From the NCBI GenBank assembly GCA_037176725.1, contig JAZBRS010000026.1, positions 99,121,501 to 99,185,500 of the forward strand: a stretch of 64,000 nucleotides of DNA, written 5' to 3'. The notes under the pieces were generated by a model, which did not search any database, was not told the DNA's origin, and saw only the letters and a list, made by a program, of their open reading frames with translations. Source of the stretch: Posidonia oceanica. Its lineage: Eukaryota > Streptophyta > Magnoliopsida > Alismatales > Posidoniaceae. A program made the position numbers and the translations under genes. Below are positions 41,514-64,000 of the stretch, one piece after another (within the stretch, counting starts at the first letter, position 1; every line of letters begins with the position of its first letter).

Positions 41514-41615
41514 CATTGTACGCGGCGAATGGAGCGGCCAACGTTATACGCTGGGAATACCAGTAGATAACGTTTTAGCTTTCGAAACGTTGGACTGGCT
41601 GAATCTCGTGGATAA
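41514..41615. repeat. Decayed 58-bp double-hairpin module and half
   Basis: 41514-41571 keeps the 9-11-9 spacing twice. Its second half pairs GTTAT with ATAAC although both differ from the consensus. A further decayed half starts at 41588. It lies between X1 and Y. Confidence 0.6.
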
Positions 41616-41797: not shown

Positions 41798-43626
41798 ATG
41801 AAAATGCAATGGTTCGGCAAGGTGTACATGAAACCGGCAAAACGTGCTCGGACGGGACCTGGGCCATCGTCCCTCGGCAAGCTTGGGGCAGCTCTGACAG
41901 AACCTCCGACGGTGACAGAGGCCGTGACAATAGTTGTGGAAGGCACAACTGTGGTGGGCACGGCTGTGGAGAGCACGACTATGGTGGGCACGGCTGTGGA
42001 GGGCACGACTGTGATGGCAGAAATGGCCAAGGTGGCACCTGTGGAGGCAGCGGTGACGACTGTGGAGGCTGCGAAGGTGGCGGAGACCACGGAGGCTGGG
42101 ACGGCGTCTAAGGTCGTGGTGGTGGGTCCAGCTATTGTGGTGGGTCTGGCTACTGTGGAGGCTAGTGAGGTGGCTGGCGGTGAGGCCGCGAAGGCCAAGG
42201 CAGAGCTAGGTTCTAGTTCCAGCAGCTCCTTCAGCTACGAGGACATGGAGGAGGAGTCTGAGGAGACGGTCTTGGAGATGAGGTCTGAGGCTAGTTTGGA
42301 CGAGGTGGGCCCCACGGTGGATCGGAGGTGAGGCCGGTCGATCCCCTCATCGCGCAGTTCGGTGAGGATGACGGTTGGTGGCGGAAAATGGTGGATTTCG
42401 TCCGACGGGAGGCGAAAGGAGGCACAAGGGATCCCCCGGGATGATCTTCAGAGGGAGCTGTCTTTTAGGGCCAGTGACTAGGCTTCCTAGCTTGCTCTTC
42501 AGGATGCGTGAGTTCAGGAGCTAGAGCGGCAGGTACGGGCTGCTGTTAGTGACTTGGGATCTACTCGCCAGCTTGCTGAGGAGAGGGCTGCTGAGATTGC
42601 CTGACTTGTTGCACAGCAGCAACCCCCGTCGGCGACTGATTCAGCCGCAAAGATTGCCGAGCTGAGGAGGCAGCTAGAGGTGACTCAGGAGGTATAACTT
42701 GCTCTTCTACTTTTAAATTCATATTTCTACTTATGCTAATGGGTTGCTGTTTCTTTTTTGTCCCTTCTTGCAGGATCTGGCAGTGAGCCATGGCATGGCA
42801 GCTCTACTTGAGGGCGAGGTGATGCATTTTCAAGCCAAGGTCATGTGCAGTAGACTTGCCACTGGTCGGCCACTCCCTCTTTATCCATTGTCCATGTCGA
42901 GGCATCGCTCCGGCAGCCGTCGTCCACCGGGTGAGGGGTCTCAGGTTGCGTCCTAGGCTTCTCCAGGTGGTTCGACACGTCAGCCAGTTCGGCCTCCTAC
43001 AGCTCCTTCTTCGGACCATTCAGAGGAGATCTGCTGTCTCCAGGATAAGGTGTAAATGTCTTTATTATTTCCTTTCCGCCTTTTAGTTGAATTTTCCTTG
43101 GTTCTGACACCACCGTTTGTAGGTTGCTTATCTGGAGGGTGAGCTGAAGGAGCAAGCTGGTGACTTCATAGTTGCCAGCTCCGTTAGGAGGCTGGAGGAG
43201 CTGGAGGGGATTGTTGCTGCTAGGGACGCTCAGATTCGGGAGCTGGAGCAGCAGGTCGCCAACAAGGATACCAAGATTGCCCAGGCTCAAGCGGTATGAT
43301 TTGTTTTAGTGCTATTTCGTTTCTATGTCCTAGCTTGTGTCTGATATTTTGATTGCTTCCTTCCTCAGAGTTTGCAAGGCACGGAGGCGTTCACCTCTTA
43401 GCTTAAGGTTGAGCTAGGGCACTACCGGAGGTATGCCTACGTCACTAGTGCCAGGTTGGGGGAGCCTGTTCCTCCTGTACCGAGCCACCAGTCGGGTAGC
43501 CACCGCTCTTGGTCTGTCTCTAGGGCTCCGTTGGGTGTTTCTGTTCACCAGTCACCTCGGTCTCCTATCGTTCCTTCTCTAGCTCCTCCTTCAGTTCCCG
43601 AGGGCGAGGGAGAGAGCCCTTCTTAG
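41798..43626 (+). pseudogene. Y: PMD-gene derivative with the PMD core deleted
   Basis: This is homologous to Y' (minus strand, 57897-54728) but in opposite orientation. The start FGKVYMKPAKRA parallels FGKAYMRPKKLA; a Val/Glu/Thr-rich low-complexity part follows; the frame then shifts near 42330 to DDGWWRKMVDFVRRE. Near 42440 the sequence jumps to DDLQRELSF, so about 2 kb holding the PMD exons of Y' are missing. The coiled-coil part and the Ser/Pro-rich end (APPSVPEGEGESPS) remain, with splice sites such as GTATAACTT (42692) and TTCTTGCAG (42766-42774). Stops include CAG-to-TAG and two CGA-to-TGA type changes. Confidence 0.65.
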
Positions 43627-44108: not shown

Positions 44109-44240
44109 GTTATACGCCTCATCTGGTGCGGCCAACGTTATCCACTGTATTTTCTGCGTCCAACGCTGGGAAGCTGATTTAAACGTTATACACCTCACAT
44201 GGCGCAGCTAACGTAGGACGCGCTATATCTCGCGTACAAC
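44109..44240. repeat. Two decayed double-hairpin modules
   Basis: 44109-44164 and 44185-44240, 56 bp each, start GTTATACGC and GTTATACAC. The first ends GCGTCCAAC. They lie between Y and X2. Confidence 0.6.
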
Positions 44241-46250: not shown

Positions 46251-48058
46251 GACTACTACTCGGATGAGGAGCAGTCTGGCACAGTAGGGGCAGCCCGGAC
46301 CTGCAGCAAGATCCAACTCGTCTTGACAGCATCTCAGTTAGTTTGTCTGGCCCTTCCCTCCACAGATCATAAAGCAGCAAATTTGGCAGGCCTTTTGGTA
46401 GATTTGACAGTCTCTGATCTTCCTGCAGTCTTATCAGCATCACCGATGCCAGGACAAACAGCTCTGAAGTCAAGGGCACCAGCTCAGGCACAGTTAGCCA
46501 GTCTACTCGCGGCCGCAGTCGCATCAGCACAACTGTCACCCTCTCTGGTGGGTCAATCACTGAGTTCAGCCAGCAGCGCGACTCAGCCCATTTCAGCAGC
46601 CACGTCACAAGCAATGCCGCTGGCTCAGTCAGTTACACATCCTCCTACCTCAAAAGATCAACTCTTGTGGCAGGCCCCCATGGCGTCAGAGGTCGTGCAG
46701 TCACCATCACAACCAGAACCAAAGGCCCTGTCGAGCAGCACAACCTCCCAGCCATTGGTCTCCCAGAAGAACAGCTTCGCCTCCTCTCCAACTATGGCAG
46801 TGACTTTGGCAGCGCACCCATCAGCGACGCTGCTGACCAATCTGTTTGGATCACTGATGATCAGGCTGCCGCAATCTGCCATGCCCGTAGGCCAGCCAAA
46901 GCAAGCACCCAGAACCATGGTACATGTAGCAGCCAGGCCAGAGCTAGAGGCCCTCGGCGCTTACTACGTCGACTCACCCTTGGATGAGGAAGAAAGAGCA
47001 GCAACCGAGGCCTAGGTTGATGCATGGATGGGAGACTTAGAGCTGCTGTACCAGGAACAACTCACGTTGCTAACAGAGGACCTGGCAGCATATCAGGTGG
47101 CCGTGAAGAAGGGGAAAGCCGTGGCTACGGACCCCTCCTCGCAGAAGGACCATGCCTCTATCATGGTCATTGAAGAAGACTCAGCGGCAGTGGCCCCCAC
47201 TAGACCGGATGAACTGATCACTTTGCAGCCACAAGGTGGGTCTGGGTGGTTGGTGCAGCACATGCCTCACTCCAGCAATACCCCGATTGGCCACCAGTCT
47301 GATATACCCTCCACAAGAAGGAGCATGGAGGGGGAAGCATCGGCAGTATAGGCAGTGATAGAATCAGCTGAATCAGCAGAGCCAGCAGTGGCAGAGTCAG
47401 TGGTAGTGCCAGAAACAGAGTTAGCAGCAGTGCCATCAGCAGCGGAGCGGGCAGAGGAGATTGCCAAGACAGAGGTCGCGCATCGAGGATACAGAAACAC
47501 TCGAGTAAGCGTGACCATCCTGAAGCGTCACTAGGGCCAAGAAGCAGAACATCTACACTCCTTTGACATAACAAACCCTACCTTTGAAAAGGAGATCCTC
47601 TCGGAACTTATTGCATACAGAGAAGAAGATGATGTAGGCAAGGATGAGAATGATGGACCATCGCCCGAGTTCCGGCCCTATGACGACGATCCAAAAGGCC
47701 CCAACCTTCATGTCGAAGAGGAGACAGAGGTTGTTAACATCGGCACAACCGAGGAAGCCAGAGAAGTTCGCATCAGTGCCCTATTATCGGCCCAGGCCAG
47801 AACAGAGTTCATTGCATTTCTGAAAGAGTATGCAGATGTCTTCGGTTGGACCTATGAAGACATGGTTGGCCTCGATGTCGAAATAGTAGTCCATAACCTG
47901 CCCTTGGATCCAGATGCCAAGCCAGTAAAGTAGAAGCTAAGAAGATGGCGATCACAGTGGCTGCTCATGATCAAAGAAGGGATAATGAAGCAGCTCAGTG
48001 TCAATTTTCTGAAAGTCATTCTTTACCCTGAGTGGCTAGCGAACATTGTGCCTATGCC
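46251..48058 (+). pseudogene. Element 4, left part: linker and RT N-terminus
   Basis: Homology to element 1 begins abruptly at 46251 (DYYSDEEQSG) and follows it through YYVDSPLDEEE, SFDITNPTFEKEILSEL and EFIAFLKEYADVF to NIVPMP at 48058, where element 3 interrupts. Gag and protease are absent to the left. In-frame TAGs at 47013, 47349, 47532 and 47931 stand where Gln is expected; element 1 confirms CAG or CAA for several. The frame resumes at 62373. Confidence 0.88.
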
Positions 48059-48217
48059 TGTAGATACCCCGTTTTGGCACTCCCTTCATGTTAGTGTAGT
48101 CTGTTGCGTTAGGCCACCTCTAGAAGCTCTTTTCTCAGCTCAAGTACACTCATCAAACTTATTGACACCTGTCCCTGTGGTCGAGAGGGTAAAATTGGCA
48201 AGTTTCCATTTGAGTGT

Positions 48218-48353
48218 GTTGGACGCCGGCTAGTCTAGCATCCAACGTTGGACGCTGTGTGTCATAGTGTCCAACAACAAGTTCCATTTGAGTGTGTTGG
48301 ACGCTGGCTGGTCTAGCGTCCAACGTTGGATGCTGTGACTCATAGCGTCCAAC
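48218..48353. repeat. Two double-hairpin modules in LTR E U3
   Basis: 48218-48275 and 48296-48353, each exactly 58 bp as 9-11-9-9-11-9. The second reads GTTGGACGC, 11 nt, GCGTCCAAC, GTTGGATGC, 11 nt, GCGTCCAAC. They are separated by 20 bp. Confidence 0.95.
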
Positions 48354-48526
48354 GACCTGGTTTTCAGTTTCCCCAAACTTGCCATATTTGGCTGAAATCA
48401 AATTTCGTGCTTTGCCTCCACTAAGTGTCATTTGACCGGTCAAGGCCTTAATGGGTTTTAATGGTCATTAATCAGCCACTTATTGAGGAATATTCTTTGA
48501 TCTTGGCATCTTTGCCTCGGAGTGTC

Positions 48527-48555
48527 GTTGGACACTGTAATGTTCAGCGTCCAAC
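48527..48555. repeat. Single 29-nt hairpin in LTR E U3
   Basis: GTTGGACAC, 11 nt, GCGTCCAAC, 53 bp upstream of the TATA motif. Confidence 0.9.
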
Positions 48556-48608
48556 ACTTCTGAATCAGGAAAGTTGCTGACTTGGCCTTTTTGTTCCTCC
48601 CCTGCTTC

Positions 48609-48616
48609 TATAAAAG
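48609..48616 (+). promoter_or_regulatory. TATA box of LTR E
   Basis: TATAAAAG, conserved in LTR F at 61643-61650, in the right place for an LTR promoter driving rightward transcription from about 30 bases downstream. Confidence 0.65.
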
Positions 48617-49344
48617 CAGGGGTACCCCCACTAGGATCGGGGACAGAAATTGGAGAGATCTGGGAGGGATTTAGGTGTGATTTTCAAGAGAGAAACACAA
48701 TTTTGAGAAAAAGTAGTGAGAGCAAGTAGAAAGTGTTTTGAGCTCAAATCTTGAGAGAAGAGGTGGAGAAAGAGTTTTGTGGGAGCTTGAGTCCTCCTCC
48801 ATCATCCGTGACATCGCATCAACCCCACTTGCATTCCTTGCATAGACAAAAGGGGGCTTTCTTTAATTTTCATTTTCTTTTCACATCATATGTTTAATTT
48901 CGTAGTATAGTGAAGCATTTCATTTCATATATTGTTGTAGCTAGGCATAGTCATACTTAGTTGCAACCGGGGGGATAAAACCCCTCGAGTAAGTACTCCA
49001 CCTTTCATTTTATGTTCATTTTCAATTTGTTTTGAATCATATACTACACTTTGTTAATCCGTATCTTTAGAATCTGTTTTGCAAGGAAAAGAAGAAGAAG
49101 AAGAAACTCATCAAGTAGGGGCACCCTTGGGCAACGCTGGCGTTGTCCCAAGGTAGCTGAACCTGCAACCACACTACATCTCCCCAAAGGCGTCTCGAGG
49201 GCCGGCGAAAGTGAACCAAGAGTGGCGATCACACCAATTCTGTCACCTATGGAGTGACGGAGTTGGATATCAAAAGGGGGCAACGAGGAAGCACTAAATA
49301 GACACAACAAGCTCCTCCTAATCAAAAACCCCATATCCTTAGAT

Positions 49345-49362
49345 TGGCGATCATGGTGGGAC
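49345..49362 (+). other. Primer-binding site candidate of element 3
   Basis: TGGCGATCATGGTGGGAC starts three bases after the LTR end. It starts with TGG as required; the matching tRNA was not identified. Confidence 0.6.
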
Positions 49363-49576
49363 GGCTAAAAGTGCCCCCGTGCTAGGTGAGTGTCCACTTC
49401 TTCTTCTTTCTTTTCCTTTGCAATCTTTCTTTTACTTTTGCGGATTTTTTTCGAGGTCGTGGCGAAATTCCTCGTGGTGTTTTGAGGCACCACGACCCTC
49501 TTAGTATTTGTTCATTAATTATGAACTAAAAAGCATGTTTCTACCTCTTATTTAAATAAGTCTGGTCTGTCAGTGC

Positions 49577-49634
49577 GTTGAAAGTTGTGCAGGGCAGCGT
49601 CCAACATAGGATGCAGCCTATTCCAGCATCTTAC
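49577..49634. repeat. Double-hairpin module
   Basis: 58 bp; second hairpin ATAGGATGC / GCATCTTAC keeps GATGC-GCATC pairing while both arms depart from the consensus. Confidence 0.75.
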
Positions 49635-49818
49635 GTCTCTGGCCAGTTTTTTATCTTTTTTTTGTTGCAATTTCTTCTGTTAGGTTTTTTTCTTTATGTT
49701 GAAAAATGTATGCAACCACCCCTTTCTTTTGTTCTGATTCTCTGGAATAAAGGGGTGTTTGAGTAAAAAAAAAAGAATCTCTTGTTTTAGTTGTCTAAAA
49801 AAAATCTCCTGTTTGTAT

Positions 49819-49876
49819 GTTGGACGCTGCTGTTTAGTGCATCTTACATAAGACGCCAGCACTGTTTGCGTCTTAC
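49819..49876. repeat. Double-hairpin module
   Basis: 58 bp; second hairpin ATAAGACGC / GCGTCTTAC pairs 8 of 9 positions with coordinated changes in both arms. Confidence 0.85.
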
Positions 49877-50588
49877 ACATCTGGTCAGGATTCCTTCTGT
49901 TTTTAAATCTTCTTTTTGTTTTCTTTTTATAACTGACCCAAGGAACGAGGTGTGAGGTGATCGGCTTTGCCATAGGGACCGAAACCCTAATACTTGGGTG
50001 CTTTTTGAAAATCCAAATAAAAATCGAGTTTTCCTTGTAACATGTATGACCCTTGATTGGGAACTAATTTGATTGTGTCTCTTCTTGGATTACACAAAAT
50101 AACCACTTAAATCCTGAGCACCTCTGTTGCAAAGGGCTTAAGAGAGGTGTTTGTGTTGTCACTTGCTTTCACAAGGGGTACTCTTCCTTCCCTTGCTCTG
50201 CATGAAAGTAAGTTAGAATCCCAAGTCCAAATTTATATTCCTTCCCCTCCTTCGGTGGTTTGTTTATCTTGTCTATTATTGTGTTAATACGCGAGAGACC
50301 TGACCAATTCGGAGTACGCTAGGCTCTACCTCTATGGGGTAGGGACCTAAGTGTGCTCAGGCTCCCCAAAGATTCTCAAGAGTTGAGATAGGGGCAGTAC
50401 CAAAGAAGAATAACATTTTGTCCTGTTTGTGAGGATCCATAAATAACCCACGAAGGCAAGGCATACCCAAGCTTTAAGGAACCCTAAGAGTCATGCAGGT
50501 TTAAAACACTAATAACAAAGCGAAATCCAAAAATCAAAATTTTAATCGCTCTTTGAAAGTGTTTCTGTGCAACTCTCTGTTACAAGGT

Positions 50589-50646
50589 GTTGGACGCTAT
50601 ACCAATCTTCGTCCTACGTTGGACGCTGGAACACATCGCGTCCAAC
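50589..50646. repeat. Double-hairpin module
   Basis: 58 bp; both left arms are GTTGGACGC and the last arm is GCGTCCAAC. Confidence 0.93.
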
Positions 50647-51090
50647 ACATTCTCTGTTTATTCCTTTTATTGCTTGATCATTTGGTGGAATTATTGGATG
50701 CTACAGGATGAATGTTTGAACAGGGGTTATAAACAAGTCATCTAAACTCTATCTGGAGTCCTTTCTTTTTTTTTAGATAGTTGTAGTAGATTGTAAAGAG
50801 CTTTTGTAAGTCTTATTGCTTTTCTTTCTTTTGTCTATCAAAGTGTAAGAGTTGTAATATTTTTTCCTTTTATTAGCAAAAAAGAAAGAAAAAAATTAGA
50901 AAGAGGAAAAAAAAAAGAGAAAAAAAAGAAAAAGAAAAAGAGAAGCAAAAGAAAAAAAAAAGAGAAAAAAGGGAAAAGTCCTTGTATGGTCCTGTGATCC
51001 TCAAGAGCACAGGGATTTTGTCCATTAAGAAAAATATCTCTCCAAGGAACAATTGGTGGCACAAAGACAGGGCAGGAGGCAACTGGAAGT

Positions 51091-51148
51091 GTTGGACGCT
51101 TTTGCTATAAACGTCCAATATAGGACGCTACTCGCTCCAGCGTCCTAC
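51091..51148. repeat. Double-hairpin module
   Basis: 58 bp; second hairpin ATAGGACGC / GCGTCCTAC has a matched change in both arms. Confidence 0.93.
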
Positions 51149-51310
51149 ACTGCCATTTCACTTCAGAGCCAATCAGCGCATCAATCGCTTGCCATTTGCC
51201 AAGATTGAACCCAAAAATACAAGGAGGGTGTCCCAGGGAGTTGTGGTAGTCATTTCTGCATAGTCGAGCACTGATTGCATTGGTTAAACCAACCAATAGA
51301 AGGTAAGGGT

Positions 51311-51368
51311 GTTGGACGCTACTAAAGCTTGCGTCATACATTGGACACTGCTGCTGTCTGTGTCCTAC
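51311..51368. repeat. Double-hairpin module
   Basis: 58 bp, ending 46 bases before the first Met of gag at 51415. Confidence 0.9.
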
Positions 51369-51414
51369 ACTTGCTGTAACAGAACTTAAGCAGAAACCAG
51401 AGAAGCTGATTTAA

Positions 51415-52956
51415 ATGTCTGAATCCGAAAGTAGCTACACAGATACAGATAGCATGCCCGAGGAGGAACCCATCATGAGATTATTCGATCCAACCACTGG
51501 AAAAGAACTGGATCCCAACTCGGCCCAATATCAAGTACTGTGTCGCTTCCTTTACAGTGACAACTATCATCCTGGTTCGTCAAATCAAAGAGATGAGGAT
51601 CTCCATCAAGAACAACACCTCCCTAGTAAAAGACTACGAAGGACTGCTGCGGGCCACGTCCCTGAAAATTTGCACCAAAGACAAAACGGCATTGCGCCGT
51701 CGGATGCCCAACACTAGGGGTGGGAAAATGACTCGCTAAGAGGATTCTGAGAAAGGTCGAATCCTCTATTCGTTGAACAGCCACAGCAGCAGCCACATGG
51801 CAAGGGAGCCGATCCATTATTCTCCAACCAACTAGAGCAGAACTATCAGGTTCCTCTTCAGCCTGGTATGAATATACAAGGAGACAATCAACAGTTGCAT
51901 GCCAATCAAGTAGCAAATGCGCAAATTCATGGCGGGCTCAGCAATTTAGCAGAAATGAGGAAGGTCTTAAATTCCTTAGGGGTTCAGACACAAGCTCCCC
52001 CAACTTTTGATATGGGCAAATTCCCACCATTTCAGCTTCCTCCTGGCTTCAAGCATTCAAAAACGCCAAAGTTTGATGGGACTACCAACCCGCAAACCCA
52101 CATCATCTGGTTTCAAATGGAGTCAGCTTCATACTTTCATGACTTGGGCTTCGTCATTCACCTTTTCTTCTATTCATTGGAAGGCGAACCCATGGAATGG
52201 TTCCTTACCCTCTCCGGAGACAACCTCAGTAGCTTCAACAAGATCAAGGAGTGCTTCTTGACCAAATATCAACACAAGATTGAGTCGAAGATGACCTTTC
52301 ATAACTTGAGCAGGGAGACCATGAAGCCGGATGAAGAATGCGTCACCTTTGCAAATAGATGGCGGGAGATGGCTACCAAATCAGGACTGGACATCCCAAA
52401 AAGACAACTTATCCATACATTAATTGCAAATACTATTGGTCCAATGAAAAGGGGGTTTGCAAATGCTTATTGCCCCTCTGTAACTACACTTTATGAGGTA
52501 GCTGCTTCTGTAAAAGAAAATATGCATGAATTTCAGAAAATAGAAGACGATACTAAGTCCGTTCTTCAAGTTGTGAAGTAGCAAGATTTTCCTCTTCAAG
52601 ATTACCGGCAAAATGGCAGCCGCTCTGGGAAAGAAGGCAACACCAGGGGCAACTATAATCATGCAGCTCCACAACAGCAGTCCAAGAGACCAAAACACAC
52701 AAGCTATCCTCCTATCCCAGTCACGTTGATGGACATGTTTGCAGAAATGATAGAGGCCCGAGCAATCGACCTCTCGCCTCGAAGACCTGAAGGGACGAAC
52801 TGCGACAGGAGCAAATATTGCCAGTACCACAGGAGACGTGGGCACAATTTAGAAGACTGCTGGGTCTTTAAAGACATCGTCTATGACCTGGTGGACGTAG
52901 ACGTCTTCAATTGGGATGTACAGATAGAGAGGGCTCAGAAGTTCCACAAAGACTGA
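51415..52956 (+). pseudogene. gag of element 3, frameshifted
   Basis: The best part is 51868-52578: TPKFDGTTNPQTHI, FFYSLEGEPMEWFLTLSGD, KECFLTKYQHKIES, ETMKPDEECVTFANRWREM, the core of a Ty3/gypsy gag domain. A TAG at 52579-52581 stands where CAG fits; the same frame continues to a zinc-binding CQYHRRRGHNLEDC and ends at 52956. Upstream, the start at 51415 (MSESESSYTDTDSMPEEEP) and the stretch IKEMRISIKNNTSLVKDYEG are in different frames, so at least two frameshifts lie between 51490 and 51868. It would package element RNA if intact. It is the only retroviral-type gene in element 3. Confidence 0.82.
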
Positions 52957-53906
52957 AGCCAGCTTCTCAAGAGTCTCTACTGATGGAGGCTACACTAGGG
53001 GCATTTCCCCAAAGTGTTGTAAATAGACTTTTCTTTCTTTGTTTCCGTATTTGTTTCTGCTGAAATATACCCAAATAAGACATCTTTTCCTTCCATAAAA
53101 TATAAATATAAACAAATGAGAAGAAGATTCACTACCCAAGCCTGGGAACTTGAGAACCGAATTGGGAAAGACTATACTTGGTGGTTGGGGCATATCCGGG
53201 CAATGGCACTAAACTTGAATATCTCTGGAGTGCACTGCACCTCAAAAGGTACTACCCTTGACATGCACACAGAGCCACTAGATTGCCCGTGCTTGAGGAC
53301 CTACTATTTCCAAAACCTAGGAGTCATACCTTAGCCTCACCCCACAAACACTTTGTGGGAGGAGGAAAGGAAATTATCCAACATTGAGATAGAGGCAAAT
53401 CATAAGGAGCCCCCTCCCAGTTCATGAATAACAAGTCCAAAAAATGATAAAGTCAAATGATAAAGTCAAGAATCCAAAAAAATGATAAAATCAAAAATCC
53501 AAAAAAAAGATAAAGTCAAAAATCCAAAAAAATCATAAAACCTAAAATCCAAAAAATAAGCAAAAAGATCAAAAAAGATAAGGATAAAATCTACCCAACC
53601 AACATTACCTCATGAAACTGATAACAAATCTGGCCGATGATAAAAATCCTAGGGCACTAGTGACTCCGCGTCGCGTTTTGACCACTCCTATTTAGGACGG
53701 TCACTTGGTACTCGCTTGCGAGTAGATACCATCTTCATGTAGACAACAAATTTGAGGCCAGATTTACTATCCCCCATCTAAGTTTATTCCAAGCAATACA
53801 TGTACATATTCATTATTTCTTTTTTCCTTGGACTAGGGGCAAGGGGCACCCTAGATGGTCTAATCTGATTTTGTTTAAGTTTCTCTGTAGAAAACTTCTG
53901 TTATAT
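52957..53906. other. Non-coding stretch after gag
   Basis: No gene supported. It includes AATCCAAAAAATGATAAAGTC-type short repeats at 53430-53590. Confidence 0.5.
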
Positions 53907-54214
53907 GTTGGACGCAGCCGTGTCTTGCGTCATACATTGGACGCCACTTATTCTGGCGTTCAACGCAGCAAAATAAAAGAAAAAAAAAATAAGAGATGTT
54001 GGACGCCACCTCTTCTGGCGTTCAACGCAGCAAAAAAGGGGAAAATAAGCCAGAGTTGTTGGACGCATCCTATTCTGGCATCATATATTGGACACAATCT
54101 GTTCCGGCGTTCAACGCAGCAAACAAAAGAAAAAGAAAAAAAAATTAAGAAAGAGCTATTGGACGCTATCTATACTGGCGTCCTATGTTAGACGCAGTGA
54201 TAGTTGCATCCAAC
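53907..54214. repeat. Cluster of double-hairpin modules
   Basis: Full modules at 53907-53964, 54058-54115 and 54158-54214 (57 bp) and a single hairpin at 53998-54026, separated by A-rich linkers. The cluster lies just beyond the 3' end of Y' and separates it from gag. Confidence 0.92.
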
Positions 54215-54727
54215 GTTTTTCAGCAACTTAAGTTGCTGAACTTCGCTCATGGCCTTCCAAATCCATGGACAAATTGCCAAACCAATTTCTACCAGTTCCA
54301 GAGGCTTCTACAAGTTCAAATACACATGTGGGAGTTGGTTTCATATTTTTTGGACCTTCTGGCCATCTAGAATCACCTGTTGTTGTTTACATTAAGTTAT
54401 TGACTTATTAAAGCGCCAACGGCCGTGGAATTCAGAATTAAAGCTCGCAAGTGAAATTTTTCTTCATAACTCTGTCATTTGCATATTATTACACGTAATT
54501 AAGCTTGTTTCAAGTTAAATTGAATTAAAAACCATCAGTTGGAGGTGCTCCCCCGACTATTGGTTATCTTAGTTCATTTTCAACTTAGAGAAAGGTAAAG
54601 AAAAAAGAAGACATTTGACAAGTTTGCTAAGTGTGCAGAAAATATTTATCATTTATAAATCTGAGTTTTCTACAATATCACCAGGGCATACCCCTGAGGT
54701 ACAAGTGTTGAAAAGAAAAAGAACAAC

Positions 54728-56454
54728 TAAGTGGCACTCTCCCCCTCGCCCTCGGGAGCTGAGGGAGGAACTGAAGAAGGAGCCGAAGGAGGAGCCGCAG
54801 GGGGCTGCGCCAACTGACGCACCGAGCCACCTGAGGAGGCTTGAGACCCCCCAACCAGTGGATGACGGCTGCTAGAGCGATGCCTCGACACAGACAATGG
54901 AGGAGGAGGAACTCGGCAACCAGTGGAAACACTACCAAGCACAGCCTCCCGTCGGTAATGCATCGCCTCGGTCTTGAACTGAGCTGCCATCGCACGATCC
55001 GCATCTTGTTCCTGCAAGAAAAGACAAAGGAGAAGCATCAAGCCATTAGCATAAACGAGCATATGAACTTAAAAGTAAGAAGAGCAACTTATACCTTCAA
55101 AGCCATCTCCAGCTGCCTCCTCAGCTCGGCAATCTCAATAGCTGAATCAGTCGTCGGTGGAGGTTGCTGCTGTACAACAAGCCGGGCAAGCTCAGTAGCC
55201 TTCTCCTCAGGGAGCCGACGAGCAGAGCCTAGGTCACTAACAACAGTCTGTACCTGCCACTCTAGCTCCTGAACTCGTGCATCCCGAAGAGCAAGCTGGG
55301 AAGCCTGGTCACTGGCTTGAAAAGACAGCTCCCTTTGAAGATCGTCAATTTGCAAAAGCCGGAGCCATAGTCAGAACTGAATCAAGAAATATAAAGGGAA
55401 AGTATACTACTATACTTACCATACTCTGAAGGTGGGAAATCTCCCTGGCATGACCTGGTGGAGGGGCAGAACTAGTCGAAGGCTGCAAGCAAAGAAGGCG
55501 TACTTAGCACAATTTTCAAGGCAGACAACTATGCTATAAACATAAATGCAAACCTGAGAAGCAGAGGCTCGCAGACGCTCAACCTCCTCAGTCAGCTCAG
55601 CAACGCGCCTAACCAAGTCGCGCTCACGCTGACTATACTCGTCAGTAGTCCTCAATTGCAAGGGGCAAGGTCCAAGCAAGTTAGCTGTCAAGAAATACAG
55701 GCAATACAAACATAGAGCTAAATGCTCACCGCTATCTCCATCTGAATCCTATGAGAGCGGACGGACTCCTGTAGCTCGCCCACAGCCATCGTTGCCACAT
55801 CTGGAGCGGTGTCACCCATGGGAAGGTTCGACCGCCCCAGAAAATGAGAGCGATGGAAGACCATGAGCTCACTAAACTGGTCATCCATCCACCTGGCCCA
55901 AGCCAACTCGTCCTCAGCGGTCACGTCAACAGGAGTGGTGGAGCCGCCACGAACCCAGTCCAGCAACTGTGGATCGTAGGTGTCAACCAAGTGGTGAGCA
56001 TGACCACCTCCCCCTCGTACCTCGTGCCAAACTCAGAACAGGTGGGCCTGACGCTGAATCTGCTGGCGCCCCAACTGCCTAAGTGCCCGGCTGATCTGCT
56101 GGAAGTGGCAGTGGTTCCAGCAGTGGAGCCAGATGTCCCAGTCAAAAACTGCCCGGTCCCGAGCTATCTCAGGGACATCCTCATGCTCCCCCTCGGCGTA
56201 AGGACGCCAGGTCACTTGAAAAGTATGCAGTGAATCAGTAAACCCAAATGCAGAATAATATATCAGCAGGGGCATATTACCTGGGCAGGAACAAGCATCT
56301 CGAAGAAGAGATGCTCGACGTAGCGGTGGCCAGTGACCGCCTCAGGTGCATGAGCAGCCAGACCCCAGTGCAGCCCATGCGGGAATGGGATCCCCGCCTC
56401 AGGAACCGAAGGTGGGATGGGCCTCATGAAGGTAAAGTGGTCCCATACCCACAT
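54728..56454 (-). pseudogene. Y' downstream exons: PMD end, coiled coil, Ser/Pro tail
   Basis: Continuation of Y' with several introns. Exon 3 (56454-56281) follows acceptor TTGCAG and reads WVWDHFTFMRPIPP, completing the PMD. Exon 4 (about 56214-55730) reads VTWRPYAEGEHED and carries one TGA at 56035-56033 where CGA fits. Later exons near 55650-55556 and 55480-55420, a coiled-coil exon (DDLQRELSFQASDQASQLAL to about 55095) and a last exon after TTCTTGCAG (55020-54728) ending PEGEGESAT follow. Splice sites look plant-like, but the phases at exons 3/4 and 4/5 do not join cleanly in my reading, so some boundaries are wrong or mutated. Confidence 0.55.
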
Positions 56455-56541
56455 CTGCAAGTAAAAAGAAAGAAAATCATCAGTCGAGCATGAAGAGTAA
56501 ATAATATTTGAAGCTTAAACAAGCAAATAAAGCTTATATAC

Positions 56542-57897
56542 CTGAAAGAATGGTAGGTTCCCGCCAAGCTGGCGAGAACTACCGTCAAAGAACTTGAAGA
56601 ACACAGTGTACAAAAATGCCAAGCTCGCAGCTCGCCAAGCATACTCCCCTACTCGATCTAAGTCGGCAAGCAGGGGCAAGAACACCGCTGAAACCCGCGA
56701 AGTGGCGTGGCTGAAAAGCAAGTTCCCAAACAAAACTAGAAGAAAGGTGTAGAGCTGCTGATCGGCGTCCTCCCCAGGCTCCGTTGCTGTCTCTCGGGAG
56801 TCCTCGACGCGCTGAACCGCCGAGGTAGTAACAAAAAGACGGGGCCCGTACATGACGACCCGTCTCCCCACCAACTCCACCATCATAGAGGTGTAGTCGG
56901 AGTGTACTAGGCCAGTCACCGGGCGTCCCGTCACCTGTAGGCCAGTCAACCGGGCCATGTCCTCTAGCGAAAGGACAAACTCGCCAACCCGGGTCTCAAA
57001 GGAGCTCATGTGAGGGTGGTAGCACTCTGTAGTAGACTCCAAAAGTCCCAACTCAAGCTGGAAGAGCAGAATGGACAGGAAGTGTCCAAACCACATCTGC
57101 CGGAGCCGCTCGTGCTGGAAAGGCCCCAACATCTGGTAGCACCTGAGGACCTGACCCCAGTGATAGTGCACGATGGTGGGAGCCCGACTCTGCAAGAGAG
57201 AGAAGAATTGCCGACAGGGTGCACAAAAATAATACTTGAAATTAAATGGAAATATGGTTACCTGTCCCCTAGCCGCCAGTGCAGCTACTGCAAACTCGGC
57301 TCGGGCCGCATCCCTGCGGAGTGCCGAAGCCTGTACCTCATCGTGCAGTATATGAGCCCGTGTGAAGTCAGGAGGAGCACCAGCGTTGGGCTCTACCTCC
57401 CGTCGAACGAAGTCCTGGATTCTCGCATACCAGCCGTCATCCTCAGCCATCCCGGCAGTAGCAGTGGGGACCGCCTCGGGAACCTCCTCCTCCGACCCCG
57501 ACTCCTCTGAATCCTCGCCGAGAGTGGCTGAAGAATCAGAATCCTCCGAGCCAATAGAGGCGCTCGTCGCCTCAGTCTCCTCGGGCACGTCTACTGGTGC
57601 CCCCACCTCCACAGTCTCCACAGCACAAGCTGCTGCCTCGGGCACGTCTACCAGTGCCACCACCTCCTCAGTCTCCATGGCACATGCTGCCTCGGGCACG
57701 TCTACCGGTGCCACTACCTCCTCTGGCAACTCAACTGCCACCTCCTCCGTCATACCCACTACTGACACCTCCTCCGTCATCTCGACTGCCTCCGGCACCC
57801 TCACTAGAGCCGGCCCAGACTCGCCGAACGTCGATGGGCCATCCCCCCTCTGTGCCAACTTCTTGGGCCTCATGTAGGCTTTACCAAATCTCGGCAT
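56542..57897 (-). CDS. Y': plant mobile domain gene, first two exons (antisense in element 3)
   Basis: The Met at 57897 opens MPRFGKAYMRPKKLAQRGDG, then a Val/Glu-rich acidic stretch. Exon 1 ends at GACAG/GTAACC (57262/57261) and exon 2 starts after TTGCAG at 57189; the 72-bp intron is in phase and open. Exon 2 carries the PMD: MSSFETRVGEFVLSLEDMAR, LTGLQVTGRPVTG, LYTFLLVLFGNLLF, FLPLLADLDRVGEYAWRAAS, and ends at CTTTCAG/GTATAT (56542/56541). PMD proteins are plant proteins frequently carried by transposons, with some host copies acting in silencing; what this one does is unknown. Being antisense to the element would protect its introns during retrotransposition. Double-hairpin modules lie on both sides. 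Confidence 0.7.
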
Positions 57898-58202
57898 AAA
57901 TTGGAAAAGACCGAATAGAGGTCAAAATACAATCTGGAATGATGAAGAGGAGGAGAGGAAAGGAAGAAAGGGAGCTCACCGGAGCTGGAAGCTGTTGTTC
58001 TGGTCGCCGGAATCCGCACTACCGCCGCCGCTGTGCCCTAGCTCCGGCCGTCCAAGCTGCCGAACACCCGAGCTGCCCAACGCCGGAAGAAGCTTGGAAG
58101 TCTAGAAGGAGTTGTCGCCGTCGCTGGAGAAGAGGAGGAAGGGAAGTGGTGAGTAAGAAAATGGGGAAAAAAGGCGGAGAGGTCTGTTAAAGACCCCGAC
58201 GC

Positions 58203-58338
58203 GTTAGACGCTACGCTCCTTTGCGTCAAACGTTGGACGCAGTAAGGAGCAGCGTCCTACACCCCAGGTGACAGTCACATGTTGGACACAAGAAGTTTTA
58301 GCATCATATGTTGGACGCATAAGGCTGTAGCGTCCAAC
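58203..58338. repeat. Two double-hairpin modules upstream of Y'
   Basis: 58203-58260 and 58281-58338, 58 bp each and 20 bp apart, the same 20-bp separation as the pair in the LTRs. They lie about 300 bp upstream of the Y' start, in its likely promoter. Confidence 0.93.
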
Positions 58339-58499
58339 ACTTCAGAGCAGTTTAAAATGCAGAATTTTGCCAGAAAACTTGCAAATCCATTTTCTTCCAA
58401 TACCGAAGGCTTCTACAAGCTAGAATGCACATGGAGATGAGGCCGTCATGATTTTCAAAGCAAAGATCCTGGGGCACCGCCGGGTCAACAAAGCGAAGC

Positions 58500-58865
58500 C
58501 AAAGAAGTATCCTTTTATCTCCTTGGGCAACCCCCTCGGCGTGTTTTATTCCAGTTTTCCCTTGGGCACCCCCCTCGGTGTATTATATCTCAGTTTTTCC
58601 TTGGGCGACCCCCTCGGCATGTTATATCTCAGTTTTTCCTTGGGCAACCCCCTCGACGTGTTTTCTTTTAGTTTTTTCTCGGGTAACACCCTCGGTGTGT
58701 TTTATTCCAGTTTTCCCTTGGGCGACCCCCTCGACGTGTTATATCTCAGTTTTTCCTTGGGCGACCCCCTTGGCGTGTTTTCTTTTAGTTTTTTCTCGAG
58801 TAACCCCCTTGGCGTGTTTTCTTTTAGTTTTTTCTTGGGTAACCCCCTCGGTGAGTCTTTTTAAT
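58500..58865. repeat. ~39-bp tandem array
   Basis: Units of about 39 bp containing CCCCCTCGGCGTGTT and CAGTTTTTCCTTGGGC. The period is divisible by three, so two frames stay open with a 13-residue peptide repeat; not a gene. Confidence 0.88.
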
Positions 58866-58908
58866 TCCAGTTCTAGCCCTTTGGCCAACGCCTAAAGGTA
58901 GATCCTTG

Positions 58909-59300
58909 AGTGTTGGATAAGTCCAGCTCAATCCTTGAGTGTTGGATAAGTCCAGCTCAATTCTTGGGTGTTGGATAAATCCAGCTCAAACCTTGAGTGT
59001 TGGATAAGTCCAGCTCAAAGCTTGAGTGTTGGATAAGTCTAGCTCAATCCTTGATGTTGGATAAATCCAGCTCAATCCTTGAGTGTTGGATAAGTCCAGC
59101 TCAATTCTTGGGTGTTGGATAAATCCAGCTCAATCCTTGAGTGTTGGATAAACCCAGCTTAAACCTTGAGTGTTGGACAAATCCAGCTCAATCCCTGAGT
59201 GTTGGATAAACCCAGCTCAATTCTTGAGTGTTGGATGTCTGATCCAGCTCATTTTCTCTGAGTGTTGGAAGTTTGATCCAGCTCAAGTCTTTTAAATGTT
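58909..59300. repeat. ~29-bp tandem array
   Basis: About twelve units of TTGAGTGTTGGATAAGTCC plus AGCTCAATCC. The period matches the 29-nt hairpin and GTGTTGGA recalls its arm, but there is no inverted partner. Confidence 0.88.
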
Positions 59301-59334
59301 TTGTTTTCCCCTTGGGCAATCCCCTCGGCAAATT

Positions 59335-60175
59335 TGCAAAGAACCTCAGAGCATAACCGGGATACCAAAGCAAAGAACCCTGGAGCATAACCGGGACACC
59401 AAAGCAAAGATCCCCGGATCATAACCGGGATACCAAAGCAAAGATCCCCAGAGCATAACCAAGATAACAAAGCAAACCTATCAAGGAAAGATCCCCAGAG
59501 CATAACCGGGACAGCAAAGCAAAGATCCCCGGAGCATAACTGGGATAACAAAGCAAACCAATCAAAAGTAGATCCCCAGAGCACAACTGGGATAACAAAG
59601 CAAACCTACCAAGGAAAGATCCCCGGAGCATAACCGGGACACCAAAGCAAAGATCCCCAGAGCATCACCAGGACACCAAAGCAAAGATCCCTGGAGCGTA
59701 ACGGGGATAACAAAGCAAACCAATCAAAAGTAGGTACCCCGGAGCACAACCGGACAAACAAAGCAAGCCCCGGAGCACAATCAGACAAATAAAGCAAGCC
59801 CCAGAGCACAACCGGACAAACAAAGCAAGCCCCGGAGCACAACTGGACAAACAAAGCAAACCTCGGAGCATAACTGGGATAACAAAGCAAACCAATCAAA
59901 AGCAGGTACCCTGGAGCACAACCAGACAAACAAAGCAAGCCCCGGAGCACAACTAGACAAACAAAGCAAGCCTCGGAGTACAACCGGACAAACAAAGCAA
60001 GCCCCGGAGCACAACTGGACAAATAAAGCAAACTCCGGAGCACAACCAGACAAATAAAGCAAACCTCAGAGCACAACCGGACAAACAAAGCAAACCCCGG
60101 AGCACAACCGAACAAACAAAGCAAAATCAATCAGCAGAAAGAACCCCGAAGCATGACCGGGTCAACAAAGCAAAG
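59335..60175. repeat. ~32-34-bp tandem array, two subtypes
   Basis: Left part: units of GATCCCCGGAGCATAACC plus GGGATACCAAAGCAA. Right part from about 59760: CCCCGGAGCACAACCGG plus ACAAACAAAGCAA. About 25 units in all. Open frames on the minus strand are cysteine-rich repeats produced by the array. Confidence 0.9.
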
Positions 60176-60700
60176 CCAACGGTATTAGTGAACCCCCTGT
60201 TCACTAACTCCCGGGTCAGAAGATGATGGTCCCCACCGAGAATGTAGGCAACATTCAATGAAAGGACACTTGATTCTGACGAATAGTTCATTGATTCCGA
60301 ATCACGAGATGACGGTCTCTGTCGAGAATGTAGGCAACATTCGATGAAAGGACAACTAATTGTGACGAATAGAGCCAACGTGGTCGGCAGAGAAGAGATC
60401 ATTTCCCCTTTTGCCTGGGAGCATCATGGGCCTCTCGCTCACCAACCCGCGTATCATGAGACGACGTTCCCTGGGAGAGTGTAGGCTACACTCGAGGAAA
60501 GGGCACCTGATCATGACAAATTGCATTCACGCATGTGTCAGTCTGCCTTGGGTGGTGAGAAATATTCCTGAGCCAACCCGGTATACAAATTAAAGCCGAC
60601 GATGAGGGAGGAACCTAATTACCTATCATGACCCCTTTTGTATTCCCGTCAGCACGCATCCATGCATAGCGCATTGTACTACATTCGCATTGAGTGGTCG
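60176..60700. other. Irregular long repeats between arrays
   Basis: Three diverged units with GAGAATGTAGGCAACATTC and GAAAGGACA (60235, 60325, 60475). No gene supported. Confidence 0.5.
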
Positions 60701-60719
60701 TCGGAATCATTAGCTATCC

Positions 60720-60960
60720 ATCCTTTTAGTTTGACCTCACGGGCAACCCCCGTGGCAGTGTCTTTTAGTTTGACCCCCGTGGCATGTCTTTTAGTTTGAC
60801 CCCCGCGGGCAATCCCCATGGCATGTCTTTTAAGTTTGACCTCACGGGCAACCCCCGTGGCAGTGTCTTTAGCTTGACCCCTGCGGGCCATCCCCGCGGC
60901 ATGTTGTTAGTTTGTTCCCCTTGGGCAATCCCCTTGGTCATGTTTCTTTAGCCGACCCTC
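60720..60960. repeat. ~38-bp tandem array
   Basis: Five to six units of AGTTTGACCTCACGGGCAAC plus CCCCGTGGCAGTGTCTTT, each with a CACGGG/CCCGTG hairpin. Confidence 0.85.
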
Positions 60961-61078
60961 TTTGTGTCCCGTCCAAGCCTGGTGGCAGCAGGTATTGGAT
61001 TTCATTTAGGATCTTTAGGTAGTGCCACACGGGGGTATCGTCTCGCCTTGTAGATAGCTTCATGCTGAAGCCATCTCC

Positions 61079-61093
61079 AAGGAGGGGCAATCT
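61079..61093 (+). other. Polypurine tract of element 3
   Basis: AAGGAGGGGCAATC directly before the right LTR; it fixes the plus orientation of the element and resembles the tract of element 1. Confidence 0.8.
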
Positions 61094-62372
61094 GTAGATA
61101 CCCTGTTTTGGCACTCCCTTCATGTTAGTATAGTCTGTTGCGTTAGGCCAGCTCTAGAAGCTCTTTTCTCAGCTCAAGCACTCTCATCAAACTTATTGAC
61201 ACCTGTCCCTGTGGTCGAGAGGCCAAAATTGGCAAGTTTCCATTTGAGTGTGTTGGACACCGGCTAGTCTAGCATCCAACGTTGGACGCTGTGAATCATA
61301 GCGTCCAACAACAAGTTCCATTTGAGTGTGTTGGACGCTGGCTGGTCTAGCGTCCAACGTTGGACACTGTGACTCATAGCGTCCAACGACCTGGATTTCA
61401 GTTTCCCCAAACTTTCCATATTTGGCTGAAATCAAATTTCGTGCTTTGCCTCCACTAAGTGTCATTTGACCGGTCAAGGCCTTAATGGGTTTTAATGGTC
61501 ATTAATCAGCCACTTATTGAGGAATATTCTTTGATCTTGGCATCTTTGCCTCGGAGTGTCGTTGGACACTGTAATGTTCAGCGTCCAACACTTCTGAATC
61601 AAGAAAGTTGCTGACTTGGCCTTTTTGTTCCTCCCCTACTTCTATAAAAGCAGGGGTACCCCCACTAGGATCGGGGACGGAAATTGGAGAGATCTGGGAG
61701 GGATTTAGGAGTGATTTTCAAGAGAGAAACACAATTTTGAGAAGTAGTGAGAGCAAGTAGAAAGTGTTTTGAGCTCAAATCTTGAGAGAAGAGGTGGAGA
61801 AAGAGTTTTGTAGGAGCTTGAGTCCTCCTCCGTCATCCGTGACATCACATCAACCCCACTTGCATTCCTTGCATAGACAAAAGGGGGCTTTCTTTAATTT
61901 TCATTTTCTTTTCACATCATATGTTTAATTTCGTAGTATAGTGAAGCATTTCATTTCATATATTGTTGTAGCTAGGCATAGTCATACTTAGTTGCAACCG
62001 GGGGGATAAAACCCCTCGGGTAAGTACTCCTCCTTTCACTTTATGTTCATTTTCAATTTGTTTTGAATCATATACTACACTTAGTTAATCCGTATCTTTA
62101 AAATCTGTTTTGTAAGGAAAAGAAGAAGAAGAAGAAACTCATCAAGTAGGGGCACCCTTGGGCAACGCTGGCGTTGTCCCAAGGTAGCTGAACCCACAAC
62201 CACACTACATCTCCCCAAAGGCATCTCAAGGGCCGGTGAAAGTGAACCGAGAGTGGCGATCACACCAATTCTGTCACCTGTGGAGTGACGGAGTTGGATA
62301 CCAAAAGGGGGCAATGAGGAAGCACTAAATAGACACAACAAGCTCCTCCTAACCAAAAACCTCATATCCACA
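61094..62372 (+). repeat. LTR F: 3' LTR of element 3
   Basis: 1279 bp, near-identical to LTR E, ending CACA. Modules at 61252-61309 and 61330-61387 (58 bp each), a half at 61561-61589, TATAAAAG at 61643-61650. Confidence 0.94.
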
Positions 62373-64000
62373 GTGCCCAAGAAAGATGGCCGAGTCCGAA
62401 TATGTATCGACTACCGGGACCTGAACAAAGCGAGTCCCAAGGACGATTTTCCATTGCCTCATATTGACGTCCTAGTCGACAACACTGCAGGCCACAAGAT
62501 GCTATCCTTTATGGACGGCTTCTCCGGCTATAATCAGATCAAAATGGTAGAAGAAGACATGGAAAAGACTTCATTCATCACCCCCTAGGGAGTCTTCTAC
62601 TATCAAGTTATGCCGTTTGGGCTGAAGAATACTGGCACAACCTATCAGAGGGCCATGACTACACTTTTCCATGACCTCATGCACCAAGAAGTGGAGGTCT
62701 ATGTAGATGATATGATTGCCAAAACCAAAGAGCCTGAGGATCACCTTGCTTGCCTAAAGAAGCTCTTTGACCGCTTGAGGAAATACAAATTGCGGCTTAA
62801 CCCCGGTAAATGTGTATTTGGGGTATCATCTGGCAAACTCTTGGGCTACATTGTTAGCTAGAGGGGGATTGAAGTGGACCCGATGAAAGTAAAAGCCATC
62901 ATGGACATGCCACCCTCAGGACTGAAAAGTAGGTCCGAGGCCTACTTGGGCGTTTACAGTATATCAGTCGCTTCATTACACAGCTTACGTCCATCTACGA
63001 AACCATATTCAAGCTCCTGAAGAAGAATGCAAAAATCGACTGGAGTGAGGAGTGCCAGGCTATATTTGATAAAATTAAGCAACTTCTGATCAAACCTCCT
63101 GTCCTGGTTCCTCCCATGCCAGGGAGACCTTTGCTTCTCTACCTTTCTACCACGCAGCATTCCATGGGCACTGTCTTGGGCCAACATGACGAATCTGGTA
63201 GGAAGGAGCACGCCATTTATTACCTGAGCAAGAAGTTCAATGAATGCAAGGCCAGCTACAGCACATTAGAGAAGACCTACTTATCCCTTGTCTGGGCTGC
63301 ACAGAAACTAAGGCATTATATGATGGCATACCCAGTTCAGCTCTTGTGCCAGCATGATCCTATCAAGTTCCTCTTTCAGAAGCCAGCTATGGTGGGCAGA
63401 TGTGTCAAGTGGTAGGTGTTGTTATCTCAGTACAACATCACCTTCGTCACACAGAAATCCATGAAGGGCCAGGCCATGGCAGATTACCTTGCTGATTTTT
63501 CTCTGCCTGAATACTAGCCACTCCAGATGCAGTTCCCTGACGAGGACATTCTCTTTGCAATGGAGGACTCTGAGGAGAAAGACCCTGAGGGCCAAGAGGA
63601 ATGGCAGCTGTACTTTGATGGCATTGTCAACAAGAAGGGCCAAGGCATAGGCACAGTGCTGACCACGCCCTAGAGGCAGATGGTTTCTTTTTGCGAGGAA
63701 GTTGACTTCCACATGCACAAACAATGAAGCGGAATATGAAGCATGCATCCTGGGATTGAAAGTCACCCTCAAGCATAAGGCGCAGAAGCTGCATGTGCAC
63801 GGTGATGCCATGCTGGTGATCACTCAACTAAATGGCGACTGGAAGACAAAAGATCCAAAATTTGTGCCATATCACAAACACCTGCTGAAGCTAATGGAAG
63901 AATTTGGGAGCATCTGCTTCACATATATGAACAGAGCAAAGAACGCGTACGCAGACGCACTAGCAACCCTGGCATCTTGGCTCAGTATACCTGAAGACAG
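62373..64000 (+). pseudogene. Element 4, right part: RT, RNase H, second RNase H
   Basis: Resumes exactly at the codon interrupted by element 3 (VPKKDGRVRICIDYRDLN). RT retains the active site YVDDMIAK at about 62700-62724, unlike element 1. Stops: TAG at 62586 (Trp expected), 62859, 63413, 63515 and 63671 (Gln expected). Frameshifts lie near 62912 and near 63690. RNase H (LLLYLSTTQHSMGTVL) and the second RNase H (WQLYFDGIVNKKGQG, then TNNEAEYEACILG) follow, and the window ends inside the latter. Integrase would follow outside the window. Confidence 0.9.

What the first reader, a model, noticed from the sequence alone, without database searches (positions are those of the whole stretch)
48218..61589. 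A recurrent 58-bp module of two abutting 29-nt hairpins
The unit is 9-nt arm, 11-nt loop, 9-nt arm, twice, without spacer. Consensus arms are GTTGGACGC and GCGTCCAAC, so the centre forms a near-perfect 18-20-bp palindrome. Full copies measure exactly 58 bp at 48218, 48296, 49577, 49819, 50589, 51091, 51311, 53907, 54058, 58203, 58281, 61252 and 61330 (57 bp at 54158); single 29-nt halves are at 48527, 53998 and 61561. Fixed arm and loop lengths with variable loop sequence suggest selection or a copying mechanism acting on structure. I know of no described repeat of this form; function is unknown.
Basis: seen in the sequence. Interest (0 to 1): 0.87.

Follow-up and report, generated by a model that had tools for sequence, protein, structure and literature searches.

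The report
Paired hairpin cassettes in plant retrotransposons
A 58-letter cassette made of two tiny inverted repeats occurs tens of thousands of times in this plant-like genome, in jumping genes wherever it was examined, and in most families looked at the middle letters of each repeat change faster than the DNA around them while the arms and the spacing stay put.

Summary
All 17 listed copies lie where stated; in the window the arm pair occurs at spacing 11 and almost no other. The 3'-LTR copies duplicate the 5'-LTR ones, and a diverged 56-57-bp form continues in an older element outside the range. The copies sit in noncoding parts of nested Ty3/gypsy retrotransposons: upstream of the LTR TATA box, in the leader, around gag and an antisense plant-mobile-domain ORF. 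In the 2.96-Gb genome the exact 29-nt half occurs 82,515 times (reversed control 0); exact outer arms 12-40 apart occur 52,901 times, and all 50 listed are 56-58-bp dimers. New: loop centres diverge 1.4-4 times faster than other DNA of the elements, by family, and in the window's family faster than gag four-fold sites, with a transversion-rich spectrum and a peak at the central base. The peak is absent from pooled profiles of two other families. LTR pairs show no clear excess after insertion. Pairing-specific covariation is not seen. Best reading: a cis-acting, probably protein-bound palindrome cassette, akin to Sirevirus LTR palindromes but dimeric and spacing-locked. Binding, transcription and small RNAs are untested.

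The parts
48062..49338 (+). 5' LTR of the inner, apparently non-autonomous Ty3/gypsy element
   Evidence: 96.7% identical to 61096-62369; inserted into the pol of an outer element, imperfect 5-bp target repeat read by eye
48218..48275 (.). 58-bp module, LTR U3
48296..48353 (.). 58-bp module, LTR U3
   Evidence: both hairpins fold, z -8.4
48527..48555 (.). single 29-bp half; relatives have the full dimer here
   Evidence: gap of exactly 29 against L009, L010, L016, L021
48609..48617 (+). TATA box of the LTR, downstream of the three U3 modules
   Evidence: sequence
49577..49634 (.). 58-bp module, leader (first arm decayed)
49819..49876 (.). 58-bp module, leader
50589..50646 (.). 58-bp module, leader
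51091..51148 (.). 58-bp module, leader
51311..51368 (.). 58-bp module, upstream of gag
51868..52581 (+). gag ORF part (237 aa)
   Evidence: Pfam PF03732 E 5.7e-5, 23.7 bits, just under the 24.1 cut-off; 9 homologues, best E 1e-100
53907..53964 (.). 58-bp module, downstream of gag
53998..54026 (.). single 29-bp half
   Evidence: gap of exactly 29 against L014
54058..54115 (.). 58-bp module
54158..54214 (.). 57-bp module (11/10 loops)
56515..57897 (-). antisense ORF with plant mobile domain (460 aa)
   Evidence: Pfam PF10536 E 3.6e-19
58203..58260 (.). 58-bp module, upstream of the antisense ORF
58281..58338 (.). 58-bp module, upstream of the antisense ORF
61096..62369 (+). 3' LTR
61252..61309 (.). 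58-bp module, LTR duplicate of 48218
61330..61387 (.). 58-bp module, LTR duplicate of 48296
61561..61589 (.). single half, LTR duplicate of 48527
41515..41571 (.). diverged 57-bp module of the outer segment (loops 10/11)
44109..44164 (.). diverged 56-bp module of the outer segment (loops 10/10)
44185..44240 (.). diverged 56-bp module of the outer segment
45968..46023 (.). weak diverged 56-bp module of the outer segment
46039..46094 (.). diverged 56-bp module of the outer segment; central palindrome nearly perfect

Best explanation
The module is a cis-acting inverted-repeat cassette of plant Ty3/gypsy LTR retrotransposons. Four copies of one 9-bp recognition word (GTTGGACGC, followed in the loop by a weak T and purine) stand head-to-head and back-to-back at locked distances. 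Shown: location in noncoding segments of the window's elements, arm sequence, spacing 10 or 11, dimeric state, loss in 29-bp steps, loops that diverge faster than their surroundings, no pairing-specific covariation. Inferred: a dimeric DNA-binding protein, of the host or encoded by an element, reads the arms and not the loop, and binding at U3 and between the ORFs promotes transcription or counters silencing, as suggested for Sirevirus palindromes and shown for VANC motifs in VANDAL transposons. Also inferred: the loop, the unread spacer of an inverted repeat, is mutated, most of all at its apex, while the element is active (hairpin extrusion during transcription, or reverse transcription through the hairpin), because LTR pairs of one element show no clear excess after insertion.
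For: Genome counts: N11 82,515; N0-10 14,131, all 50 listed N10; N12-40 52,901, all 50 listed 56-58-bp dimers; controls 0. Arm positions T2 and A6 hardly vary. The 12 distinct window dimers lie in the LTR or in the internal noncoding stretches, none within gag or the antisense ORF. CpG observed/expected 0.96 in modules, 0.43 in the other noncoding DNA of the element, 3' arrays left out. Family A: loop centre 179/512 differences against 1931/22422 noncoding and 32/266 gag four-fold sites; apex 51/83. In one LTR family the loop has 0.268 differences per site and the 11 bp lying 10 bp further on 0.097. Tree-aware changes: 71 on 70 sites against 485 on 2015. In one further module the apex alone varies: 16 T, 14 G, 4 A of 34. 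LTR pairs: loops 8/209 against 102/4379.
Against: No binding, expression, methylation or small-RNA data could be consulted. The element-encoded candidate (PMD ORF) has no shown DNA binding here. RNA folding is strong for 5 of 7 modules tested (z -5 or below), so an RNA role is not excluded. In family B the excess is weak (0.202 against 0.148); in families B and C the centre base is no higher than its neighbours (15/72 and 12/45) and transversions per transition are only 0.70 and 0.69 against 0.54 and 0.38. The LTR-pair sample is small (4 pairs; loops 1.6 times the rest, P 0.16), so a modest rise after insertion is not excluded. A free spacer alone would not exceed the neutral rate, so a second process must be assumed.
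Confidence: 0.5

Rival explanations
1. Small-RNA escape: hairpin- or palindrome-derived siRNAs target the module; arms are held by function, so the loop, the only free part of a 21-24-nt match, is under diversifying selection, strongest at the centre where mismatches block slicing.
For: Hypervariability is seen between elements but not clearly within LTR pairs; transversion excess in the window's family. In maize Sireviruses the palindrome region is described as a small-RNA hotspot with rapid evolution (passages in PMC5311732 and PMC10760457).
Against: Flanking DNA 10-20 bp away is not diversified; a single apex base varies with its neighbours nearly fixed in one module; no small-RNA reads were available.
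Confidence: 0.18
2. RNA element: in the transcript each half folds into a hairpin used for packaging, dimerisation, processing or translation of downstream ORFs; selection keeps the stem and loop length.
For: Strong folding of 5 of 7 tested modules, z -5 or below; modules stand upstream of gag and around ORFs; arms 3:4 covary in the 12 window dimers (P 0.005) and 1:2 weakly in a wider set (z 2.15).
Against: No excess specific to the pairs that would pair; A.C 16 against G.U 10; loops are neither complementary to each other nor clearly self-paired; two of the five strong folds (50589, 58203) are one long hairpin, not two, and the diverged module 44109 does not fold (z 0.53).
Confidence: 0.15
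3. Passenger minisatellite: a 29-bp unit that duplicates and is lost as a block, spread by the elements without function.
For: Exact 29-bp losses, three abutting halves in L003 and L006, similar loops within a module.
Against: Arms are shared by modules whose loops and spacers no longer align, all 50 listed N12-40 places are dimers, and spacing is locked to 10-11; drift would blur these.
Confidence: 0.12

Closest known systems
Palindromic repeated motifs (RM) of Sirevirus (Ty1/copia) LTRs, Bousios et al. 2010, PMC2829016 (section 9 and passages read)
   Same: Many near-identical palindromic copies rich in CpG, clustered in the LTR upstream of the TATA box and again in front of an extra 3' gene; later described as a small-RNA and sequence-evolution hotspot (PMC5311732, PMC10760457, passages)
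   Different: Ty3/gypsy-type elements here; 9-bp arms around a fixed 10/11-nt gap instead of a gap of a few bases at most (my reading of its Table 3); two abutting units as the usual form; copies also in the leader and downstream of gag
VANC-target motifs of VANDAL transposons, Hosaka et al. 2017, PMC5735166 (passages read)
   Same: Short words repeated in noncoding segments of a transposon, diverging between families; bound by an element-encoded protein that removes silencing
   Different: [quoted passage not shown] here they are inverted pairs with locked spacing; no protein shown
Mutable spacers of inverted repeats (non-B DNA), review PMC12887540 (passages read)
   Same: Excess substitutions in the exposed loop of inverted repeats
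   Different: Described there for DNA resident in genomes; here LTR pairs show no clear excess, pointing to the active phase

Membership tests
Sirevirus palindromic RM | Host element is a Ty1/copia Sirevirus | tested here: not met
   PF03732 gag in the inner element (just under cut-off); RVT_1 with RT_RNaseH in the outer element and in L006; that these mark Ty3/gypsy, and the labels Tat and Athila, are recalled
Sirevirus palindromic RM | Dyad-symmetric repeated motif upstream of the LTR TATA box | tested here: met
   modules 48218, 48296, 48527; TATA 48609
Sirevirus palindromic RM | CGG-CCG core | tested here: not met
   arms GTTGGACGC/GCGTCCAAC; one described RM (Tnd-1) lacks the core too
Sirevirus palindromic RM | Small-RNA hotspot | not testable with these tools
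   no read data
VANC-type anti-silencing target | Motif bound by an element-encoded protein that removes methylation | not testable with these tools
   an antisense PMD ORF is present; no binding data
[quoted passage not shown]
   inverted pairs
RNA structure element | Compensatory changes in stems | tested here: inconclusive
   no pairing-specific excess, one exception in the window set; 2,417 fully compensated G-to-A halves exist but 34 of the 50 listed are one module, and the single-mutant count needed did not complete (last try)
MITE or inserted mobile unit | Insertion polymorphism with target-site duplication | not tested
   modules sit at matching places in family copies, and the length changes looked at are 29-bp unit losses

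The most novel reading that the evidence does not exclude
A retrotransposition-linked process rewrites the centre of each inverted repeat: the loop, and in the window's family and one further module the single base at the dyad centre, is diversified without change of length, rich in transversions, at several times the neutral rate, while the flanking words stay fixed across tens of thousands of copies.
Probability: 0.32. Interest if true: 0.88.

Novelty: new variant of a known kind. Interest (0 to 1): 0.75.

Why it matters
Conserved arms with a gap that evolves faster than synonymous sites are a natural experiment: they separate what is read (words and spacing) from what is not, and expose a mutational or selective force focused on the centre of symmetry. 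If the arms bind a protein, this would be a control site shared by several LTR-element families in one genome; if the apex is rewritten during retrotransposition, it gives a countable trace of replication cycles and a direct test of hairpin-linked mutagenesis.

Tried and rejected
Loop inversion (hairpin flip): rejected; no orthologous loop fits better as its reverse complement, though three comparisons tie. Kissing loops: no excess complementarity. Self-paired loops: at most weak (no position significant; z 1.19; P 0.03 for N11 and 0.39 for N10). Wholesale loop swapping: does not explain an apex far above its neighbours in the window's family, but is not excluded in families B and C. Recent tandem duplication of ~230-bp blocks: 17 of 25 spacer comparisons within an element lie below z 2.2, eight at z 2.2-4.2, four of these in family B. 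Viral contigs: one isolated pattern match, taken as chance; the PMD protein found no relative there. A different-looking LTR pair turned out to be exact 29-bp losses. One anchor found only the window copy. One of five LTR pairs (L016/L018) was mispaired, 44% different, and left out. Gapped halves were left out of the position profile (printed).
Full report
What was checked. With at most 2 arm mismatches the window holds 20 halves at loop length 11, 2 at length 10 and none at any other length from 0 to 30; with 3 mismatches 25, 4 and one elsewhere. A scan that ignores the letters and asks only for pairing (27 pairs) gives 9 dimers with 20 or more pairs at 11/11; ten shuffles gave none at lengths 10-11.

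Where it sits. The window looks like a nest of plant LTR retrotransposons. The inner element has LTRs at 48062-49338 and 61096-62369 (96.7% identical), a gag ORF (PF03732, just under the curated cut-off) and an antisense ORF with a plant mobile domain (PF10536, E 3.6e-19); the outer element's pol pieces found no match inside it. It lies inside the pol of an outer element whose RT and RNase H pieces are at 62589-63412. Modules stand in U3 upstream of the TATA box (48609), in the leader, downstream of gag, and upstream of the antisense ORF. The modules 61252, 61330 and 61561 are LTR duplicates, so the window has 12 distinct dimers and 2 distinct singles. The outer segment has diverged relatives with 10-nt loops at 44109, 44185, 45968 and 46039 and a 57-bp one at 41515, again between ORFs (all but 45968); their pairing score alone (16-18 of 27) is within reach of shuffles, so they rest on word and spacing.

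How common it is. In the window's own genome (2.963 Gb, 80 contigs, no name given) the exact half GTTGGACGC-N11-GCGTCCAAC occurs at 82,515 places, the reversed control at 0. Gaps of 0-10 give 14,131, and all 50 listed are gap 10. Gaps of 12-40 give 52,901, and all 50 listed are complete dimers of 58 (37), 57 (10) or 56 bp (3). Three 10-kb stretches taken without regard to hits (L022-L024) hold none. The other loci were chosen because they hold hits. They include copies of the window's own element family (A) and other families. Family B is an LTR-like unit of about 2.7 kb with seven modules in each of L008, L011, L019 and L020; a more distant copy in L006 adjoins RT, RNase H and integrase domains. 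Calling that pol Athila-like, and the window's Tat-like, is from memory. Module starts lie 229-231 bp apart in 21 of 132 distances, mostly in such units; spacers within an element are mostly at chance identity (17 of 25 below z 2.2, eight at z 2.2-4.2).

How it changes: units. The single 48527 aligns to dimers with a gap of exactly 29 in 4 of 9 rows, 53998 in 1 of 4. An LTR pair that seemed to differ in its loop differs by exact 29-bp losses. The two loops of a module resemble each other beyond permutation (z 3.80 with 35 modules; z 3.69 with 24). So whole 29-bp units are lost, and probably gained, and the dimer is the prevailing state.

How it changes: loops. Aligning the inner element to relatives, loops differ at 415/1666 sites against 424/3985 in the 40-bp flanks, 2462/23121 in other noncoding DNA and 377/4793 in gag (rows are not independent). 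In the eight family-A loci alone, without the 3' LTR and the 3' arrays: loop middle 179/512, loop edge 114/619, noncoding 1931/22422, arms 161/1833, gag four-fold sites 32/266 (P about 1.6e-12 against four-fold sites, sites treated as independent). Transversions per transition are 1.1-1.2 in loops and 0.2-0.4 elsewhere. By position, 83 ungapped orthologous halves differ at 51/83 at the exact centre, 24 and 26 of 83 beside it, and 10-19 of 83 at the three outer positions on each side. Tree-aware counts in three regions: 71 changes on 70 middle sites against 485 on 2015 others; a fourth, badly aligned region gave 27/20 against 64/94. Over all four regions 30 of 162 loop changes fall on the 18 centre sites of 195 (P 1.8e-4).

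An independent look. Searching with flank and arm letters fixed, 667 LTR copies were found and 100 listed. Diversity by loop position is 0.08, 0.08, 0.15, 0.28, 0.33, 0.60, 0.42, 0.32, 0.15, 0.15, 0.38. The 11 bp lying 10 bp beyond the arm in the same LTR family (872 copies, 100 listed, many of the same places) has 0.097 differences per site against 0.268 in the loop, and transversions per transition 0.49 against 1.43; one of its positions (3) is itself diverse, 0.49. An internal module (32 copies) varies only at loop positions 2-7. A further module, met in a search for compensated arms, has the centre split 16 T, 14 G, 4 A in 34 of the 50 listed copies while every other position is nearly fixed.

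Other families. The excess repeats with less force and without the centre peak: family C middle 0.363 against 0.150 (centre 12/45, neighbours 17 and 19 of 45), family B 0.202 against 0.148 (centre 15/72, neighbours 17 and 18 of 72); transversions per transition 0.69 against 0.38 and 0.70 against 0.54. Family A in that call: 0.346 against 0.101 and 2.47 against 0.42.

When it changes. LTR pairs of single elements (4 used, 1 mispaired pair dropped) differ at 8/209 loop sites and 102/4379 other sites (P 0.16), and 7 of the 8 loop changes are transitions. From the listing, read by eye, 8 same-strand pairs 9-20 kb apart have 6 identical loops, one single transition, and one explained by 29-bp losses. 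So the excess seems to arise mainly before insertion, in the lineage that is copying.

What it is not. Pairing does not appear to be what is kept: arm identities beyond permutation are highest for 1:3, which cannot pair (z 2.98), then 1:2 (2.15), 2:4 (2.09), 3:4 (1.60), 1:4 (1.29) and 2:3 (0.42); inner arms in another sample z -0.79. In the 12 window dimers alone, 3:4 did stand out (P 0.005). A.C mismatches (16) are not fewer than G.U (10). RNA folding is nevertheless strong in 5 of 7 modules tested. Loops do not flip, kiss or clearly self-pair.

What it probably is. Words, spacing and placement are those of a protein-bound palindrome; the closest known kind is the repeated palindrome of Sirevirus LTRs, also upstream of the TATA box and in front of an extra gene (PMC2829016, section 9). 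VANC motifs show that an element's own protein can bind repeated words in noncoding segments and undo silencing (PMC5735166, passages). Arabidopsis PMD proteins have been tied to a promoter motif (PMC7156037, passages), which makes the antisense PMD ORF a candidate binder, no more. CpG is at 0.96 of expectation in modules and 0.43 in the surrounding noncoding DNA, which suggests that the words were kept against decay until insertion. The fast loop needs a second cause: mutation of the exposed apex while the element is active, or escape from small RNAs. Excess substitution in loops of inverted repeats is described in a review (PMC12887540, passages).

Limits. No expression, binding, methylation or small-RNA data. 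Genome counts are lower bounds by the tool's own note, and only the first places of each are listed. No description of this cassette was seen in seven full-text searches of an open-licence library; Bousios et al. 2016 (Genome Research) is not held and is known to me by recall and by citation.

Noticed in passing
58483-60160: Four tandem arrays with units of 39, 29, 34/47 and 31 bp follow each other in the 3' noncoding part of the inner element.
   Followed up: no
L005, L007, L008, L011, L019, L020, L021: Modules inside LTR-like units often start 229-231 bp apart although most spacers between them share no sequence, as if phased.
   Followed up: partly
17319-20546 (-) and 46503-48058, 62373-64000 (+): Two related pol regions in the window, about 86% identical over 1.6 kb and 73% over another 1.6 kb, on opposite strands.
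   Followed up: no
41804-43617 (+) and 54730-57897 (-): The antisense region of the inner element has a relative on the + strand of the outer segment, also flanked by modules.
   Followed up: partly
L015:1233-2894, L020:6597-9314: Long tandem arrays beside modules in relatives.
   Followed up: no
L001:239-267: One exact match to the palindrome pattern in a 277-kb viral contig, probably chance.
   Followed up: no
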